NCBI GenBank assembly: GCA_017465605.1 | Contig: JAFTVW010000047.1 | Span: 1-53,703 of the forward strand | Source of the DNA: Alistipes sp. | GTDB taxonomy: Bacteria > Bacteroidota > Bacteroidia > Bacteroidales > Rikenellaceae | DNA: 53,703 nucleotides | Direction: 5' to 3' | Shown here: positions 27,589 through 33,160 of the stretch, piece after piece | How the letters are laid out: the number at the start of each line of letters is the position of its first letter | How positions within the stretch are numbered: the stretch's first letter is position 1 | The notes under the pieces: generated by a model | What the model saw: only the letters and a program-made list of their open reading frames with translations | The model's database searches: none | What the model was told of the DNA's origin: nothing | Translations under genes and position numbers: made by a program

Positions 27589-28662
27589 TTATTTATTATT
27601 CATAACCTCGTTCTGGTGGTTGATACTCTCAATATGTATAGCCTCCAAAACTGAGCGTACAAACTCCTCGCTCAGATTCATTCCGCGAGTGAGGTTTATC
27701 ATTCGGCGGCAGATGTCGTCCCAACGGTTACTCTGCAAAATTGCCACGTTGTTGGCCTTCTTGATTTGGCCAATCTTCTCGGCAGTCTGCATACGCTGAC
27801 TCAGTAGGTCAAACAACTCCGAGTCAATCTGGTCAATCTGCTGGCGGCAGAGATTCAGCTCGTCGTTGAATTCGGGGTCGTTGGCTGTCTTGGCGCGCCA
27901 CATCACGTTCTCAATCAGAGTGATGCAGTCCTGTGGAGTTACCTGCTGCGAAGCGTCGCTCCACGCCTTGTCGGGGTTGTTGTGGCTCTCGATGATAAGT
28001 CCATCGAAACACAAGTCGGCCGACTGCTGGGCAATACCGTAAAGGAGTGGACGGCAACCGCAGATATGCGATGGGTCGCAAATCATCATCATCTCAGGGA
28101 AACGGCTACGCATCTCGAAAATCATATGCCACATAGGCGGATTGCGGTATTTACTGTGGCCGAAATAAGAAAATCCTCGGTGAATCAAACCTATGTTCTC
28201 CCTCGGAACACCTTCATTTATAAGGCGATTTACCGCACCAGCCCACAAGCCAATATCGGGTGTCATAGGGTTTTTGATAAGAACAGTAACCTCCTTATTG
28301 TCGTGTAGGCTTTCGGCAATCTCCTGCACAGCAAATGGCGATACGGTGGTGCGAGCTCCAATCCAAAGTATATCAACTCCGTGTTTTAGAGCGCACTCAA
28401 CGTGTGAACGATTGGCAACCTCCACTGCGATAGGCAATCCTGTGGCTTGCTTAACCTCATTAAGCCACTCCAATCCGGGCTCACCAATACCCTCAAATGT
28501 CCCGGGATTAGTACGAGGTTTCCATACACCGGCGCGTATCACATCGACCTTACCTGAACGAGCCAACTCCATAGCTGTCTCAACAGTTTGTTCGCGGGTC
28601 TCGGCACTGCAAGGGCCCGCAATTATGAGGGGTCGTTTGGCCCCAAGTACAAATCTTCCCAT
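27589..28662 (-). CDS. Fused DAHP synthase and chorismate mutase
   Basis: The 357-residue protein joins an N-terminal DAHP synthase of the type I-beta (AroA(G)) group with a C-terminal AroQ-type chorismate mutase. The synthase part shows IAGPCSAET, RAGVWKPRTNPGTFEG, KNPMTPDIGLWAGA, HRGFS and CDPSHICGCR (metal and PEP sites). The mutase helices begin LCRQQIDQIDSELFDLLSQRM near residue 268. The fusion couples the first shikimate step to the branch-point reaction toward prephenate and is typical of Porphyromonas and Prevotella. It is the last gene of the pheA-aminotransferase-tyrA operon. Confidence 0.95.
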   Translation of the reverse strand: MGRFVLGAKRPLIIAGPCSAETREQTVETAMELARSGKVDVIRAGVWKPRTNPGTFEGIGEPGLEWLNEVKQATGLPIAVEVANRSHVECALKHGVDILWIGARTTVSPFAVQEIAESLHDNKEVTVLIKNPMTPDIGLWAGAVNRLINEGVPRENIGLIHRGFSYFGHSKYRNPPMWHMIFEMRSRFPEMMMICDPSHICGCRPLLYGIAQQSADLCFDGLIIESHNNPDKAWSDASQQVTPQDCITLIENVMWRAKTANDPEFNDELNLCRQQIDQIDSELFDLLSQRMQTAEKIGQIKKANNVAILQSNRWDDICRRMINLTRGMNLSEEFVRSVLEAIHIESINHQNEVMNNK

Positions 28663-28733: not shown

Positions 28734-29576
28734 TTAATCCAAAATCTCACGAATCTTGTTGGCCTTTTTCATTGCGTCCAACAATCCATCTCTGTCGTCG
28801 CGTTCAATCATACGGCGCAGAATCTGCAATTGGTGTATATGCTCACGCAATACATCAAGCACGTTGTATTTGTTTTGCAAGAAGATTGGGGCCCACGTCT
28901 GTGGCAAACTCTTCGCTAAACGTACCGTACTCTCGAAACCTCCACCCGCCAAATCGAATATATGCTCCTCCTCACGCTCTTTCTCCAAAACGGTGAGGGC
29001 CAATGCAAACGATGTGATGTGGGAGATGTGCGAAACGTAGGCGCAGTGGGTATCCTGCTCTTCGGCCGACATATATCTGATAGGCATACCGAGCGAGTTG
29101 TAAATCTTCTCCACCTGCTGCAAAGCATCTTTGTCGGAGAGTTCGCTCTCGCAAATCACCACCGTACGACCCGCAAATGCATCGTGCTGGGCTGCCTCGG
29201 GGCCGCTATTTTCGGTACCCCACATAGGGTGTGTTGCAACCAGACGACTTCGGTTGGGGTGCATCATCACAATCTCACAAAGCTCCTGCTTCGTAGAGCC
29301 CATATCCATCAGAATTTGGTCGGGGCGTATGCGGTTCAGAATCTTTGTTGCCAATGTGGGTATTATATCAACAGGCGTGGCCAGCACAATGAGTTGGCTC
29401 TCGCTCAAAGCCTCGTCAAGCGATACAATCCTTTCGACCAAACCCAATTCAAGGGCTCGTTGAGCACTCTTTTCTGAGTGCTCAATGCCCATAACTGAGT
29501 CGTATAACCCTTTGTCTTTCAGGCTCAGGGCAAACGAACCTCCAATAAGACCCAAACCTATGACGGTAGCCTTCAT
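28734..29576 (-). CDS. tyrA: Prephenate dehydrogenase
   Basis: The 280-residue enzyme oxidises prephenate to 4-hydroxyphenylpyruvate for tyrosine synthesis. The NAD fold starts MKATVIGLGLIGGSFAL (GxGxxGG). HPMWGTENSGPEAA and SHISHITSFALAL are the conserved active-site segments, and FDLAGGGFESTVRLAKSLP follows. No ACT or mutase domain is present, so it is the short monofunctional form. It is 11 nt downstream of the aminotransferase gene and 71 nt before the DAHP synthase fusion, within one operon. Confidence 0.94.
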   Translation of the reverse strand: MKATVIGLGLIGGSFALSLKDKGLYDSVMGIEHSEKSAQRALELGLVERIVSLDEALSESQLIVLATPVDIIPTLATKILNRIRPDQILMDMGSTKQELCEIVMMHPNRSRLVATHPMWGTENSGPEAAQHDAFAGRTVVICESELSDKDALQQVEKIYNSLGMPIRYMSAEEQDTHCAYVSHISHITSFALALTVLEKEREEEHIFDLAGGGFESTVRLAKSLPQTWAPIFLQNKYNVLDVLREHIHQLQILRRMIERDDRDGLLDAMKKANKIREILD

Positions 29577-29587
29577 CTTACTTGGTT

Positions 29588-30766
29588 TTATTTTACAAAA
29601 CGGCTCTTAACGCGCTCGGCAGCCTCGGCCAAACGCTCCTCTGGCATACAGAGTGAGATGCGGATATACTTGTTACCCTCGCTACCGAAGATTCCACCCG
29701 GAGTCACGAATACATCACACTCGGCAAGCACCTTGTCTGAGAATGCAAAGCAGTCACCCTCGAAATCCTTTGGCATAGCAGCCCATACGAACAAACCTGC
29801 CTGACCCTTAACGTAGTCACAACCGAGCGCGTCCAAAAGTGCGTAACCCTGAGCCTCACGAGCATAGTATGTCTTGTTCAACTCATCAAACCACTCATTG
29901 CCCAATGCCAAAGCCTCGGCCGCAGCAGCCTGAACGGGGAAGAACATACCAGAGTCCATATTACTCTTGAATCGCAAAATGTCGCTCAAAATATCGGCAC
30001 GACCAGCCACTACACCAACTCGCCAACCTGCCATACTATGGCCCTTACTTGTAGAGTTCATCTCAATAGCTACATCGGCAGCACCCGGAATAGAGAGAAT
30101 GCTGAGCTGCAAATTGTTGCGAACAAAGCTATATGGATTGTCGTGAACGAGCAAGATGTTGTGCTTGCCTGCAAACTCTACCAACTTCTCAAACAACTCC
30201 ACTGTGGGGTGAGTTCCTGTTGGCATATTGGGGTAGTTTACGAACATCAACTTCACGCGGCTCAAATCCTCCTTCTCAATCTCCTCGAAGTTGGGATAGA
30301 AACCGTTGCCAGCGTTGAGGCGATACTCCAAAACCTCACCTCCCGCCAAAGTCACAGCAGCACGATAAGTGGGGTAGCCGGGGTTAGGTACCAATACCTT
30401 ATCGCCCTCGTCAAGGAAGGCCATACAGATATGCATAATACCCTCCTTTGAGCCCAACAATGGGAGTACCTCAGTTTTGGGATTGAGTTTTACGTTATAC
30501 CACTTCTCGTACCAGTCGGCGTAAGCCTGACGCAAGAGCTCGCTACCGTTGTAGGGCTGATATGCGTGTACATCGGGGCGCTGAGCCTCCTTGCCCAAAC
30601 GCTCGATAACACTCTGTGCGGGAGGCATATCGGGACTACCGATACCCAAACTGATAATATCGCGGCCTGCCTTGCGAAGCTCTGCTATCTCGCGATTCTT
30701 CTTTGAAAAGTAATACTCCTTGATGCTATCCATACGGTGCGAGGGAGTGATTTCTACCTTTGCCAT
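29588..30766 (-). CDS. PLP-dependent aminotransferase of the aromatic operon
   Basis: The 392-residue fold-type I aminotransferase has LGIGSPDMPP, LLGSKEGIMHI, the NYPNMPTG segment in place of the common NPNNPTG, VHDNPYSF and the PLP lysine in NSTSKGHSMAGWRVG. Relatives are annotated as LL-diaminopimelate or aromatic aminotransferases. Its place between pheA and tyrA points to transamination of phenylpyruvate and 4-hydroxyphenylpyruvate, an inference from context. It is 111 nt after the pheA coding end and 11 nt before tyrA. Confidence 0.9.
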   Translation of the reverse strand: MAKVEITPSHRMDSIKEYYFSKKNREIAELRKAGRDIISLGIGSPDMPPAQSVIERLGKEAQRPDVHAYQPYNGSELLRQAYADWYEKWYNVKLNPKTEVLPLLGSKEGIMHICMAFLDEGDKVLVPNPGYPTYRAAVTLAGGEVLEYRLNAGNGFYPNFEEIEKEDLSRVKLMFVNYPNMPTGTHPTVELFEKLVEFAGKHNILLVHDNPYSFVRNNLQLSILSIPGAADVAIEMNSTSKGHSMAGWRVGVVAGRADILSDILRFKSNMDSGMFFPVQAAAAEALALGNEWFDELNKTYYAREAQGYALLDALGCDYVKGQAGLFVWAAMPKDFEGDCFAFSDKVLAECDVFVTPGGIFGSEGNKYIRISLCMPEERLAEAAERVKSRFVK

Positions 30767-30877: not shown

Positions 30878-31687
30878 CTATTTGCCACTTTTGTACACTC
30901 CATAGACGTGTACCTCCTCGGTGACATCTTGCAGTCGGTTGAGGTTGCGGATATAGTCGTCTAAGCACTTGAACTCCAAATCGATGTGGAACAAATAGTG
31001 CCAAGGCTCGCTCGCTATGGGGTAGGATTGCAACTTCGAGAGATTGATACCATCTAATTGGCTCAAAGCTCTGAGCAAAGAGCCCTCTTCGTGGTTGGTC
31101 TTGAAGTAGAGCGATGCTTTATTGGCTTTTTCATCGGTGTTGTGGTCATAGCGTTTGAGGACCATAAAACGTGTATAGTTACTTTTGCAAGTGTTGATTT
31201 CGGGAGCAATTATTTTCAACCCGAACATCTCGGCGGCCAGCGTGCTGGCAATCGCAGCGGTGTGGCGAAGTCCATTTTGCGCTATGCGTTTTGCACTGAT
31301 TGCAGTATCCTCCGATTCGATGAGCTTCCACTGGAATTGGTCGAGGTAGTCGATACATTGCAACAGAGCCATAGAGTGTGATTCGACCTCACGAATATCC
31401 TCCAACTCCACATCGGGCAGTACCATAAGATTCTGCTTGATTGGGAGATATACCTCGCCTGCAACTTGCAGATTCTCATCTTGCAAAATGCTGTAATTGG
31501 GAATAATAGAGCCTGCAATCGAATTCTCGATAGCCATAAGACCCATATTTGCCTCTCCGTTCTTTACGGACGAGGCTACTTTACGGAATGTATCGCAGGG
31601 AATAATATCTATATCGCGGCCAAAATATTGGATAGCTGCGATGTGGTGGAAACAACCCTCGTAACCTTGTATTGCAATCTTTCGCAT
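30878..31687 (-). CDS. pheA: Prephenate dehydratase
   Basis: From ATG 31687 (MRKIAIQGYEGCFHHIAA) the enzyme has 269 residues and converts prephenate to phenylpyruvate. A longer in-frame start is rejected because it would run through the attenuator hairpin. The catalytic domain shows GLMAIENSIAGSI and the conserved TRF motif in SNYTRFMVL. The C-terminal ACT domain (KASLYFKTNHEEGSLLRAL) is where phenylalanine inhibits in relatives, and ESHSMALLQC is also conserved. It leads the aromatic operon and is controlled by a leader-peptide attenuator immediately upstream. Confidence 0.94.
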   Translation of the reverse strand: MRKIAIQGYEGCFHHIAAIQYFGRDIDIIPCDTFRKVASSVKNGEANMGLMAIENSIAGSIIPNYSILQDENLQVAGEVYLPIKQNLMVLPDVELEDIREVESHSMALLQCIDYLDQFQWKLIESEDTAISAKRIAQNGLRHTAAIASTLAAEMFGLKIIAPEINTCKSNYTRFMVLKRYDHNTDEKANKASLYFKTNHEEGSLLRALSQLDGINLSKLQSYPIASEPWHYLFHIDLEFKCLDDYIRNLNRLQDVTEEVHVYGVYKSGK

Positions 31688-31699
31688 AACCTCTATATC

Positions 31700-31735
31700 A
31701 AAAAATCCCGACCACGCTCGGCGCAGGTCAGGATT
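31700..31735 (-). terminator. Attenuator terminator in the pheA leader
   Basis: On the minus strand AATCCTGACC (31735-31726) pairs with GGTCGGGATT (31713-31704) and is followed by a T run to 31700. Its 5' arm is also perfectly complementary to GGTCAGGAT at 31786-31778, inside the leader ORF, giving mutually exclusive antiterminator and terminator folds 13 nt before pheA. Confidence 0.9.
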
Positions 31736-31765
31736 AATATAACTTATCAATGAAACGTCTTCATT

Positions 31766-31837
31766 TTAGCATACGATATCCTGACCGTTCACACGGTAAT
31801 AGTAAAATCGCTTAAAAAAGAAGAAGCTTGCGTTCAT
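31766..31837 (-). CDS. Phe/Tyr-rich leader peptide of the pheA operon
   Basis: This 23-codon ORF begins ATG 31837 and ends TAA at 31766. It starts MNASFFFFKRFYYYR, with four consecutive Phe codons, another Phe and three consecutive Tyr codons. The antiterminator arm (GGT CAG GAT, codons 18-20) is within its last third. A ribosome waiting at Phe codons would leave that arm free to pair with the terminator's 5' arm and so allow transcription of pheA. A ribosome reaching the stop would cover it and let the terminator form. The match of Phe and Tyr codons to the operon's products is strong support. Confidence 0.9.
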   Translation of the reverse strand: MNASFFFFKRFYYYRVNGQDIVC

Positions 31838-31859
31838 AATCACTCTCTATTTCGTATTG

Positions 31860-31890
31860 CAAATATATCGTAAAAAGAGCATATATCAAA
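31860..31890 (-). promoter_or_regulatory. Promoter of the pheA operon leader
   Basis: Minus strand TTTG (31890-31887), 19 nt, TATATTTG (31867-31860): a perfect Bacteroidetes promoter. The predicted transcript start is about 16 nt before the leader peptide ATG. Confidence 0.82.
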
Positions 31891-31918
31891 ATATTGGGCC
31901 TATATTTATGTAATTTTT

Positions 31919-33160
31919 TTAATGAAGTTGACTTTTTACCCACTCCATAACTCTTGCAGGGGCTTGGCCCGACTGCAACATCTTGCGCATATAATCCATA
32001 TAAGGTGCGGCGTGGTCGAAGAAGCGATAGTAACCTTTACAGAGGTAATTTAATCGCTGCTCACCGTCTGTGCTGGTGACAAACCGATTGCGGGGACACT
32101 CTCCGTGACAAGTAAATTCATATTCGCAGTTGAGACATTGGCCAGGCAGGCTATTGTGTTTGGCTACACCGAAGCGACTTTGCTGTTGGCCATACATCAT
32201 TGCCGAGAGTGATTTCTCGCGCAGATTTCCCAAACGATATTCGGGAAAGACAAAGTGGTCGCACGAATATACATCGCCGTTGTGTTCGATGACGGCTGCG
32301 TGACCACAATATTTCGACATCGTACATACCCCCGGAGGTTGCCCAACCCAATTGGCAAGTGTCGAATCGAATAGTTGAACGAATACTCTGCCCACATCGT
32401 TCTGTACCCATTCGTCAAAAATAGCACACAAAAATTCTCCCCACTCCTCGGCCTTTACCGAGTGAGGTGTAACCGAGCCGCATTGCTGGCCTGCGTGGGC
32501 AAGTAGAGTGCCGTTTGGATTATGTGTAGTTCGCTCTACTACGGGAGTGAATTGCAAAAATTGGCACTCCAATTCATCGCGGAAGAAGCGATAAAACTCC
32601 AACGGGTGAGCTACGTTTGCCGAGTTGACGGTGGCCATAGCGTTCCACTCCACCCTATGCTTGGCAAGCAGTCGAAGTCCACGCATAACATCTTTGAAGC
32701 ACCCTTCTCCTTGCCTTGTATGGCGTAAGGCGTTGTGCAGATGTTCGGGCCCATCGATTGAGATTCCCACCAGAAAATTATTTGCACGCAAGAATTCGCA
32801 CCACTCGTCGGTGAGGAGTGTGCCGTTGGTTTGGATTGCATTTACGACGCTGCGACTGCCTGCGTATTGTTGTTGTAGCTCTAATGCCCTCTTGTAGAAG
32901 GATATGGGGCGCAATAATGGTTCGCCTCCGTGCCAAGTGAACAGAACTTCAAGCGTGGTCTGCGACTGAATGTACTCCCTGATGAAGAGCTCCAACATCT
33001 CATCGCTCATCTGCTGTGACGATGAGTGATGCAGTTTGCCCTTCTCCAAATAGTAGCAATATTCGCAGGATAGGTTGCAGGCCGAGCCTATTGGCTTGGC
33101 CATAACATACATTACCCGCCCGAATGGCAGTTCAATGTTATTTTCCTCCTGCTCGTACAT
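31919..33160 (-). CDS. Anaerobic sulfatase-maturating enzyme (radical SAM)
   Basis: The 413-residue radical SAM enzyme converts the active-site Ser or Cys of sulfatases into formylglycine without oxygen. The cluster motif is Cys28-x3-Cys32-x2-Cys35 (CNLSCEYC). Further Cys in CTMSKYC, CDHF and CLNCEYEFTCHGECP match the SPASM domain with two extra clusters. TWHGGEPLLR and QTNGTLLTDEWCEFL are family segments. It lies 28 nt downstream of a Ser-type sulfatase, its evident client. It is cytoplasmic, acting before the sulfatase is exported. Confidence 0.95.
   Translation of the reverse strand: MYEQEENNIELPFGRVMYVMAKPIGSACNLSCEYCYYLEKGKLHHSSSQQMSDEMLELFIREYIQSQTTLEVLFTWHGGEPLLRPISFYKRALELQQQYAGSRSVVNAIQTNGTLLTDEWCEFLRANNFLVGISIDGPEHLHNALRHTRQGEGCFKDVMRGLRLLAKHRVEWNAMATVNSANVAHPLEFYRFFRDELECQFLQFTPVVERTTHNPNGTLLAHAGQQCGSVTPHSVKAEEWGEFLCAIFDEWVQNDVGRVFVQLFDSTLANWVGQPPGVCTMSKYCGHAAVIEHNGDVYSCDHFVFPEYRLGNLREKSLSAMMYGQQQSRFGVAKHNSLPGQCLNCEYEFTCHGECPRNRFVTSTDGEQRLNYLCKGYYRFFDHAAPYMDYMRKMLQSGQAPARVMEWVKSQLH

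What the first reader, a model, noticed from the sequence alone, without database searches (positions are those of the whole stretch)
31700..31890. Complete leader-peptide attenuator with Phe and Tyr codon runs before the aromatic operon
Seen directly on the minus strand: a perfect promoter (TTTG-N19-TATATTTG); a 23-codon ORF (31837-31766) starting MNASFFFFKRFYYYR; GGTCAGGAT inside it (31786-31778); its exact 9-nt complement ATCCTGACC (31734-31726); and GGTCGGGAT (31713-31705) plus a T run, which pairs with the same arm. These give mutually exclusive antiterminator and terminator folds. The genes downstream make both Phe and Tyr, matching the codons. Known from enteric pheA and trp operons: ribosome stalling at the control codons selects the antiterminator. 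Inference: dual Phe/Tyr sensing. Leader attenuation for a combined pheA-aminotransferase-tyrA-DAHP synthase operon in Bacteroidales is, as far as I know, poorly described.
Basis: partly seen in the sequence, partly recalled or inferred. Interest (0 to 1): 0.87.

Follow-up and report, generated by a model that had tools for sequence, protein, structure and literature searches.

The report
Phe/Tyr leader-peptide attenuator before pheA
A short upstream reading frame packed with phenylalanine and tyrosine codons, followed by two RNA folds that exclude each other, most likely lets these gut bacteria switch on their Phe/Tyr biosynthesis genes when those amino acids run short; the mechanism is classical, but it recurs in most of the related genes examined across the class Bacteroidia.

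Summary
A Phe/Tyr-rich leader precedes pheA in 22/23 genus, 93/108 order and 54/58 class loci examined, but in 5/29 outside the class; the antisense strand of the same regions gives 7/218. A terminator follows the leader in 175 of 176 loci, and its 5' arm pairs with the leader's 3' part beyond shuffles in 153 of 175. Close relatives interchange Phe and Tyr codons; a small protector hairpin shows paired changes at one base pair. Best explanation: ribosome-mediated transcription attenuation responding to charged tRNA-Phe and tRNA-Tyr. Neither regulation nor termination was measured. It is a new member of a known kind: a 2005 table lists a putative attenuator before the B. thetaiotaomicron pheA operon (PMC1173090), and a 2021 Flavobacterium paper reports clues for leader-peptide attenuation (PMC9723704). 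In the searches I could make I did not find the class-wide mixed Phe/Tyr leader or its tandem form.

The parts
31860..31890 (-). Bacteroidetes-type promoter-like site TTTG (31890-31887), 19-nt spacer, TATATTTG (31867-31860)
   Evidence: Read. TAnnTTTG lies within 80 nt upstream of the leader ATG in 22/22 genus, 71/95 order, 24/54 class and 0/5 outside-class loci, against 1.6, 4.8, 3.1 and 0.2 expected from mononucleotide shuffles. The promoter consensus is recalled.
31766..31837 (-). Leader ORF MNASFFFFKRFYYYRVNGQDIVC; control codons Phe 5-8, Phe 11, Tyr 12-14
   Evidence: Phe/Tyr-rich leaders in relatives.
31784..31797 (-). Protector hairpin (segment 1: 31797-31793; pairs with 31788-31784; GTGA loop) overlapping Tyr codon 14 and arm A
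   Evidence: -5.5 kcal/mol; 97.5% of cells paired in 24 distinct close relatives, 6 cells changed on both sides (0 of 500 shuffles as high), all at one pair.
31778..31786 (-). Arm A (segment 2), GGTCAGGAT, codons 18-20 of the leader
   Evidence: Exact complement of arm B; A:B p 0.010 against shuffles; 97.2% of cells paired in close relatives, no double changes.
31726..31734 (-). Arm B (segment 3), ATCCTGACC, shared by antiterminator and terminator
31700..31713 (-). Arm C (segment 4), GGTCGGGAT, plus T-run: intrinsic terminator
   Evidence: B:C hairpin -19.1 kcal/mol; 98.8% of cells paired in close relatives.
30878..31687 (-). pheA, prephenate dehydratase
   Evidence: PF00800 E 3.4e-55; the NCBIfam prephenate dehydratase models match below their curated cut-offs (best 197 of 359 bits).
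29588..30766 (-). class I/II aminotransferase
   Evidence: PF00155 E 1.1e-59; NCBIfam matches shown are below cut-off; substrate not determined.
28734..29576 (-). tyrA, prephenate dehydrogenase
   Evidence: NF006307 343 bits over cut-off 295; PF02153 and PF20463.
27589..28662 (-). DAHP synthase fused to chorismate mutase
   Evidence: PF00793 E 7.1e-31 and PF01817 E 8e-23; NCBIfam matches shown are below cut-off.

Best explanation
This is a ribosome-mediated (leader-peptide) transcription attenuator that makes the pheA-aminotransferase-tyrA-DAHP synthase/chorismate mutase operon respond to the supply of charged tRNA-Phe and tRNA-Tyr. Shown by sequence: the leader ORF, the control codons, the competing arms and their conservation. 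Inferred: with enough Phe and Tyr the ribosome runs to the stop codon and covers arm A, arm B then pairs with arm C, and RNA polymerase terminates at the T-run before pheA. When charged tRNA is short the ribosome stalls on the Phe/Tyr codons and leaves arm A free; if it stalls at codons 11-14 it also covers part or all of segment 1 of the protector. A:B then forms first and blocks the terminator.
For: Leader with at least 6 Phe/Tyr in 10 codons: genus 22/23 (window included), order 93/108, class 54/58; antisense of the same regions 7/218; shuffles 245/8,680. Terminator after the leader in 175 of 176 loci; A:B stronger than 95% of shuffles in 153 of 175; both Phe and Tyr in 174 of 176 leaders. 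With the whole unselected stretch before the terminator, own arm B pairs better than the mean of other loci's arms B in 172 of 175. Geometry: arm A begins a median 10 nt after the last control codon, and a ribosome at the stop codon overlaps it in 140 of the 146 loci used (footprint sizes recalled). In the folding model, pairing of B with upstream RNA has median 0.71 with the ribosome at the last control codon and 0.06 at the stop codon, lower at stop in 167 of 167. In 7 close relatives the control codons vary almost only by synonymous or Phe-Tyr exchange. Protector hairpin with paired changes. Downstream genes belong to Phe/Tyr synthesis. The same genome has a His-run leader before hisG and an Ile/Leu/Val-rich leader before ilvD.
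Against: No transcript, termination or starvation data. 22 of 175 loci fail the A:B shuffle test, among them 7 of 22 in the genus. Among close relatives the A:B helix has no double changes, so its conservation there could be partly coding or recent descent. The long-range protector test fails for the window (p 0.97) and passes in 63 of 146. Without any ribosome the class-wide model also favours A:B (median 0.71), so default termination is not predicted everywhere. Once arm C is fully out, equilibrium favours the terminator for every stall modelled except Tyr codons 12-13. 42 of 218 loci have no such leader in the wider region. In the named set 5 of 37 loci lack a leader at the threshold: one with only 51 nt upstream and four of Rikenella or Rikenellaceae (L269, L270, L273, L274).
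Confidence: 0.93

Rival explanations
1. A Phe/Tyr attenuator in which only one of the two amino acids matters in practice (Tyr in this window), the other codons being tolerated because a Phe/Tyr exchange is a single base change.
For: In the window model with the terminator complete, A:B survives at Tyr codons 12-13 (0.72-0.90) but not at Phe 5-8 (0.00-0.04). Phe and Tyr exchange freely in relatives.
Against: 174 of 176 leaders keep both. Class-wide, stalls at the first, middle and last control codons give similar pairing (medians 0.76, 0.77, 0.71). Before arm C is fully out, early Phe stalls also allow A:B in the window (0.90-0.94).
Confidence: 0.25
2. The upstream ORF encodes a working small hydrophobic protein, and the terminator is an ordinary one.
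For: It is an open frame with a start and stop codon in most of the loci examined (176 of 218).
Against: Apart from Phe/Tyr the peptides share little across families, and length and C-terminus vary (both outputs seen in part). The stretch after the control codons matches the 5' arm of the terminator.
Confidence: 0.03
3. The Phe/Tyr run is a by-product of T-rich DNA, and the hairpin is the terminator of the upstream sulfatase-maturase gene.
For: TTT/TTC/TAT/TAC are favoured in T-rich DNA; the upstream gene ends at 31919 on the same strand.
Against: Antisense 7/218 and shuffles 245/8,680 against 174/218 on the coding strand; a promoter-like site lies between that gene and the leader.
Confidence: 0.02

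Closest known systems
Leader-peptide attenuation of enteric pheA and trp operons (recalled)
   Same: Short leader ORF with cognate codons, four alternating RNA segments, intrinsic terminator before the first gene.
   Different: Mixed Phe and Tyr codons in one leader; an operon holding both the Phe and the Tyr branch plus the first shikimate step; Bacteroidetes-type promoter; no Rfam leader hit.
Multi-amino-acid leaders such as thr (Thr/Ile) and ilv (Ile/Val/Leu) (recalled)
   Same: One leader reads several end products of the operon.
   Different: Different pathway and amino acids.
Putative attenuator before Bacteroides thetaiotaomicron pheA > hisHb > aroAIbeta-aroQ > tyrA, Table 7 of PMC1173090
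   Same: Very likely the same element in a relative: same operon content, predicted attenuator.
   Different: Listed from a website prediction; no leader peptide, codons or conservation in the passages I saw. [quoted passage not shown]
Leader-peptide attenuation clues in Flavobacterium psychrophilum, PMC9723704
   Same: Same phylum, amino-acid biosynthesis operons.
   Different: One sentence in the passages seen; phenylalanine does not occur in the main text.

Membership tests
Ribosome-mediated (leader-peptide) transcription attenuation | Translatable short ORF with a run of codons for the operon's product | tested here: met
   translation itself not measured.
Ribosome-mediated (leader-peptide) transcription attenuation | Mutually exclusive antiterminator and intrinsic terminator sharing one arm | tested here: met
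   predicted folds, not probed.
Ribosome-mediated (leader-peptide) transcription attenuation | Spacing such that a stalled ribosome frees, and a terminating ribosome masks, the antiterminator arm | tested here: met
   footprint sizes are recalled values.
Ribosome-mediated (leader-peptide) transcription attenuation | Protector (1:2) hairpin that favours termination without translation | tested here: inconclusive
   Short local hairpin with paired changes at one position in close relatives; long-range version not supported in the window and significant in 63 of 146 loci; no-ribosome model differs between window and class.
Ribosome-mediated (leader-peptide) transcription attenuation | Readthrough rises when the amino acid is limiting and depends on leader translation | not testable with these tools
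   Needs experiments.
Rfam leader families | Match to a curated covariance model | tested here: not met
   Window at gathering threshold: two tRNAs only. Region 31650-31920 at E up to 5: one hit, sR16, E 2.7. 20 related loci: one tRNA.
T-box riboswitch | T-box structure recognised by the Rfam model | tested here: not met
   No match.

The most novel reading that the evidence does not exclude
A class-wide Bacteroidia control element in which one leader pools the Phe and Tyr signals, with interchangeable codons, for a combined Phe/Tyr operon. It travels with the operon between lineages and is duplicated into two attenuators in series in some members of the window's order, which would give a sharper or two-step response.
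Probability: 0.55. Interest if true: 0.6.

Novelty: new member of a known kind. Interest (0 to 1): 0.5.

Why it matters
It gives a clear, testable case of leader-peptide attenuation in Bacteroidia, whose ribosomes make little use of Shine-Dalgarno pairing (recalled) and where, as far as I know, coupling of transcription and translation is an open question. If it works as inferred, RNA polymerase and the leading ribosome must be coupled closely enough in these common gut bacteria. It also offers a natural Phe/Tyr-responsive switch for the group, and similar leaders stand before his and ilv genes in the same genome.

Tried and rejected
The 59-nt 77% second match of the leader region in the same genome (L002) shows no Phe/Tyr leader in the stretch read and was not pursued. 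A long-range protector between the 5' part of the leader and arm A was tested and is not supported in the window. Double changes in A:B within close relatives were looked for and not found; arm B is nearly invariant there, so the support for A:B comes from divergent loci (shuffle test; swap test). A first swap test used arm A segments already picked for pairing with their own arm B and is biased; I replaced it, which uses the whole stretch. The table of (A,B,C) triples was set aside because its positions were selected for being paired. My first pass over L033-L061 ignored strand and was redone. Left out of the census: of the order search, G500 (117 nt upstream) and G499 (stops in the frame), so 109 of 111 genomes with a match were examined, counting the window; of the class genomes with a match, the 8 with the most divergent PheA, whose places were not listed, so 58 of 66; outside the class, 29 of 189, most picked by hand for family spread from a cut listing and the rest being the closest matches, so 5/29 is not an unbiased rate. 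The threshold of 6 Phe/Tyr in 10 codons was set after seeing the first leaders. Alignment A2 holds the window, 22 of the 37 named loci and two loci; loci with other arm sequences, duplicates and loci without a leader were left out. Homoserine dehydrogenase loci gave no convincing leader (9 loci, two without upstream sequence); hisG L221 and trpE L224 gave none either. No shuffle control was run for the his, ilv and trp leaders.

Full report
WHAT IS THERE. I add a 5-bp hairpin, 31797-31784, that joins the last Tyr codon to the start of arm A, so that the leader has the four segments of a classical attenuator. The isolated A:B and B:C hairpins have the same predicted energy, -19.1 kcal/mol each.

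WHICH GENES. Downstream on the same strand lie prephenate dehydratase, a class I/II aminotransferase, prephenate dehydrogenase, and a DAHP synthase fused to chorismate mutase (Pfam). Of these only the prephenate dehydrogenase passes a curated NCBIfam cut-off among the matches shown. The aminotransferase matches generic models, so its role in Phe/Tyr synthesis rests on context. The gene upstream is an anaerobic sulfatase maturase.

WHOSE GENOME. The closest named records are Rikenellaceae and Alistipes metagenome-assembled genomes, the best at 92% PheA identity.

CONSERVATION OF THE LEADER. I examined 218 pheA loci, the window's included, drawn from three searches and fetched regions. An upstream ORF with at least 6 Phe/Tyr in 10 codons occurs in 22/23 genus, 93/108 order, 54/58 class and 5/29 outside-class loci. 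Controls at the same threshold: antisense strand 0/23, 5/108, 1/58 and 1/29; shuffles 245 of 8,680. In a slightly wider region the count is 176 of 218. What was left out of these samples is told under Tried and rejected; the main gap is the 8 class genomes with the most divergent PheA. The misses include contig edges (L022, L154), a partial match (L220), distant pheA genes, and one class clade in which the stretch next to pheA looks coding by eye (L060, L078, L081; L082 groups with them). Among 37 named loci, which partly repeat the unnamed ones, 32 have a leader at the same threshold; L246 has 51 nt upstream, and L269, L270, L273 and L274, all Rikenella or Rikenellaceae, do not reach it. The loci are related to each other, so the counts are not independent events.

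CONSERVATION OF THE SWITCH. A terminator follows the leader in 175 of 176. The stretch between the last control codon and the terminator pairs with the terminator's 5' arm better than 95% of its own shuffles in 153 of 175 (genus 15/22, order 82/94, class 52/54, outside 4/5). When that whole stretch is paired with the arms of other loci, the own arm is better than the mean of the others in 172 of 175 (mean -16.2 own against -10.3 kcal/mol other, Wilcoxon p 3.6e-30; genus 21/22, order 92/94, class 54/54, outside 4/5). The shared arm takes 115 different core sequences by the script's count. Among 24 distinct close relatives, the protector hairpin pairs in 97.5% of cells and has 6 cells with both sides changed, more than any of 500 shuffles, though all at one base pair and in related sequences. 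The antiterminator pairs in 97.2% with no double change and the terminator in 98.8% with one, which 57 of 500 shuffles match. Within this close group, then, only the protector carries covariation; the support for A:B comes from divergent loci.

CONTROL CODONS. In seven close relatives the control positions change by synonymous exchange or between Phe and Tyr; the exception is His at the first position in two sequences. In the wider named set the first position is less constant (His or Ser in several), L254 has a His within the Tyr run, and L259 has a rearranged leader. 174 of 176 leaders contain both amino acids. This suggests that both are read and that they are interchangeable, but a Phe/Tyr exchange is also a single base change, so it does not prove dual sensing.

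GEOMETRY AND MODEL. In the 146 loci with a significant A:B close to the leader, arm A starts a median 10 nt after the last control codon; a ribosome at the stop codon would overlap it in 140 and cover at least half in 105. In a folding model that hides the RNA under the ribosome, pairing of arm B with upstream RNA is 0.71 (median) for a stall at the last control codon and 0.06 for a ribosome at the stop codon, lower at stop in 167 of 167 loci. Part of that difference follows from masking itself; the informative part is that the spacing allows it. In the window, stalls at Phe 5-8, Phe 11 and Tyr 12-14 all allow the antiterminator (0.87-0.98) while arm C is still partly hidden, but once arm C is complete only Tyr 12 and 13 hold it (0.72 and 0.90). 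Without a ribosome the window shifts early towards the terminator (0.22), while the class-wide median stays at 0.71. So default termination without translation is predicted for the window but not in general. The transcription start (31852) and the footprint are assumptions of the model.

CONTEXT. Of 40 longer loci (L062-L101), 21 class loci with a leader have the order pheA > aminotransferase > tyrA > DAHP synthase-chorismate mutase, and one outside-class locus with a leader has it too; the rest show other orders or fewer of the four genes within the stretch. In the same genome a leader with five His codons precedes hisG and one rich in Ile/Leu/Val precedes ilvD. Among the loci looked at, a His-run leader was found in 2 of 3 hisG loci, an Ile/Leu/Val-rich one in 4 of 4 ilvD loci, and a WWW leader in 1 of 2 trpE loci, without a shuffle control. 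In the seven of these loci that I printed, a hairpin followed by a T-run lies between leader and gene by eye. 27 of 218 pheA loci carry two Phe/Tyr ORFs in series; in 19 of 27 both units pass the A:B test, 18 of them in the window's order and one (L041) elsewhere in the class. A PheA tree (215 proteins could be extracted; I used the class and outside-class ones, 30 of the order's and 8 of the genus's) places the 5 outside-class loci with a leader among the class and order sequences, and 22 of the 23 leader-less outside-class loci in the tree in one other clade; L080 is the exception and sits beside L079. That fits transfer of operon and attenuator together; it was not tested further.

WHAT IS KNOWN. 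Ten paper searches were made. PMC1173090 (passages read) lists a putative attenuator before the B. thetaiotaomicron pheA operon from a website prediction, and notes putative attenuators before combined Phe/Tyr supraoperons of two Firmicutes, one with two attenuator units. PMC9723704 (passages) reports 'Strong clues' for leader-peptide attenuation upstream of amino-acid operons in F. psychrophilum. PMC7366714 (passages) mentions small ORFs reminiscent of leader peptides in B. thetaiotaomicron. [quoted passage not shown] PMC4833913 (passages) concerns leader genes close to structural genes. PMC1262725 (passages) found no Phe or Tyr attenuators in Actinobacteria. Lopatovskaya 2010, a comparative study that may cover this phylum, is not held. 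I found no description of a class-wide Phe/Tyr leader in these searches, but the library lacks most subscription journals.

VERDICT. The mechanism is classical and therefore not surprising in itself. The interest lies in how widespread it is in a class where it is hardly described, in the mixed Phe/Tyr codons, and in the tandem form.

Noticed in passing
L222 (own genome C35) and L235 (own genome C11): Leaders MITAINIHHHHHILQEVR before hisG and MNTNLYIINLLNLVVLRR before ilvD, each followed by a hairpin and T-run: likely further attenuators.
   Followed up: partly
L041, L124, L125, L127, L167, L197, L210 and others: Two Phe/Tyr leader-terminator units in series before pheA; 27 of 218 loci by ORF, 19 of 27 with both units passing the A:B test.
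   Followed up: partly
window 30878-31687 and genus loci: PheA of the genus falls at about 72-86%, 54-58% and 40-43% identity to the window's. The window's type groups with families outside the order in the tree, which held 8 genus loci, all of the first type: possible operon transfer.
   Followed up: partly
own genome G000 and its genus: No anthranilate synthase N-terminal domain match (PF04715) in the window's genome although pheA, hisG and ilvD are present; 14 of 36 other genomes of the genus have no pheA match at E 1e-20, some of them incomplete: patchy auxotrophy is possible.
   Followed up: no
window 31764-31750, strand -: An ATGAA...TTCAT hairpin lies just after the leader stop codon, inside the A-to-B loop, and recurs in many close relatives by eye; role unknown.
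   Followed up: no
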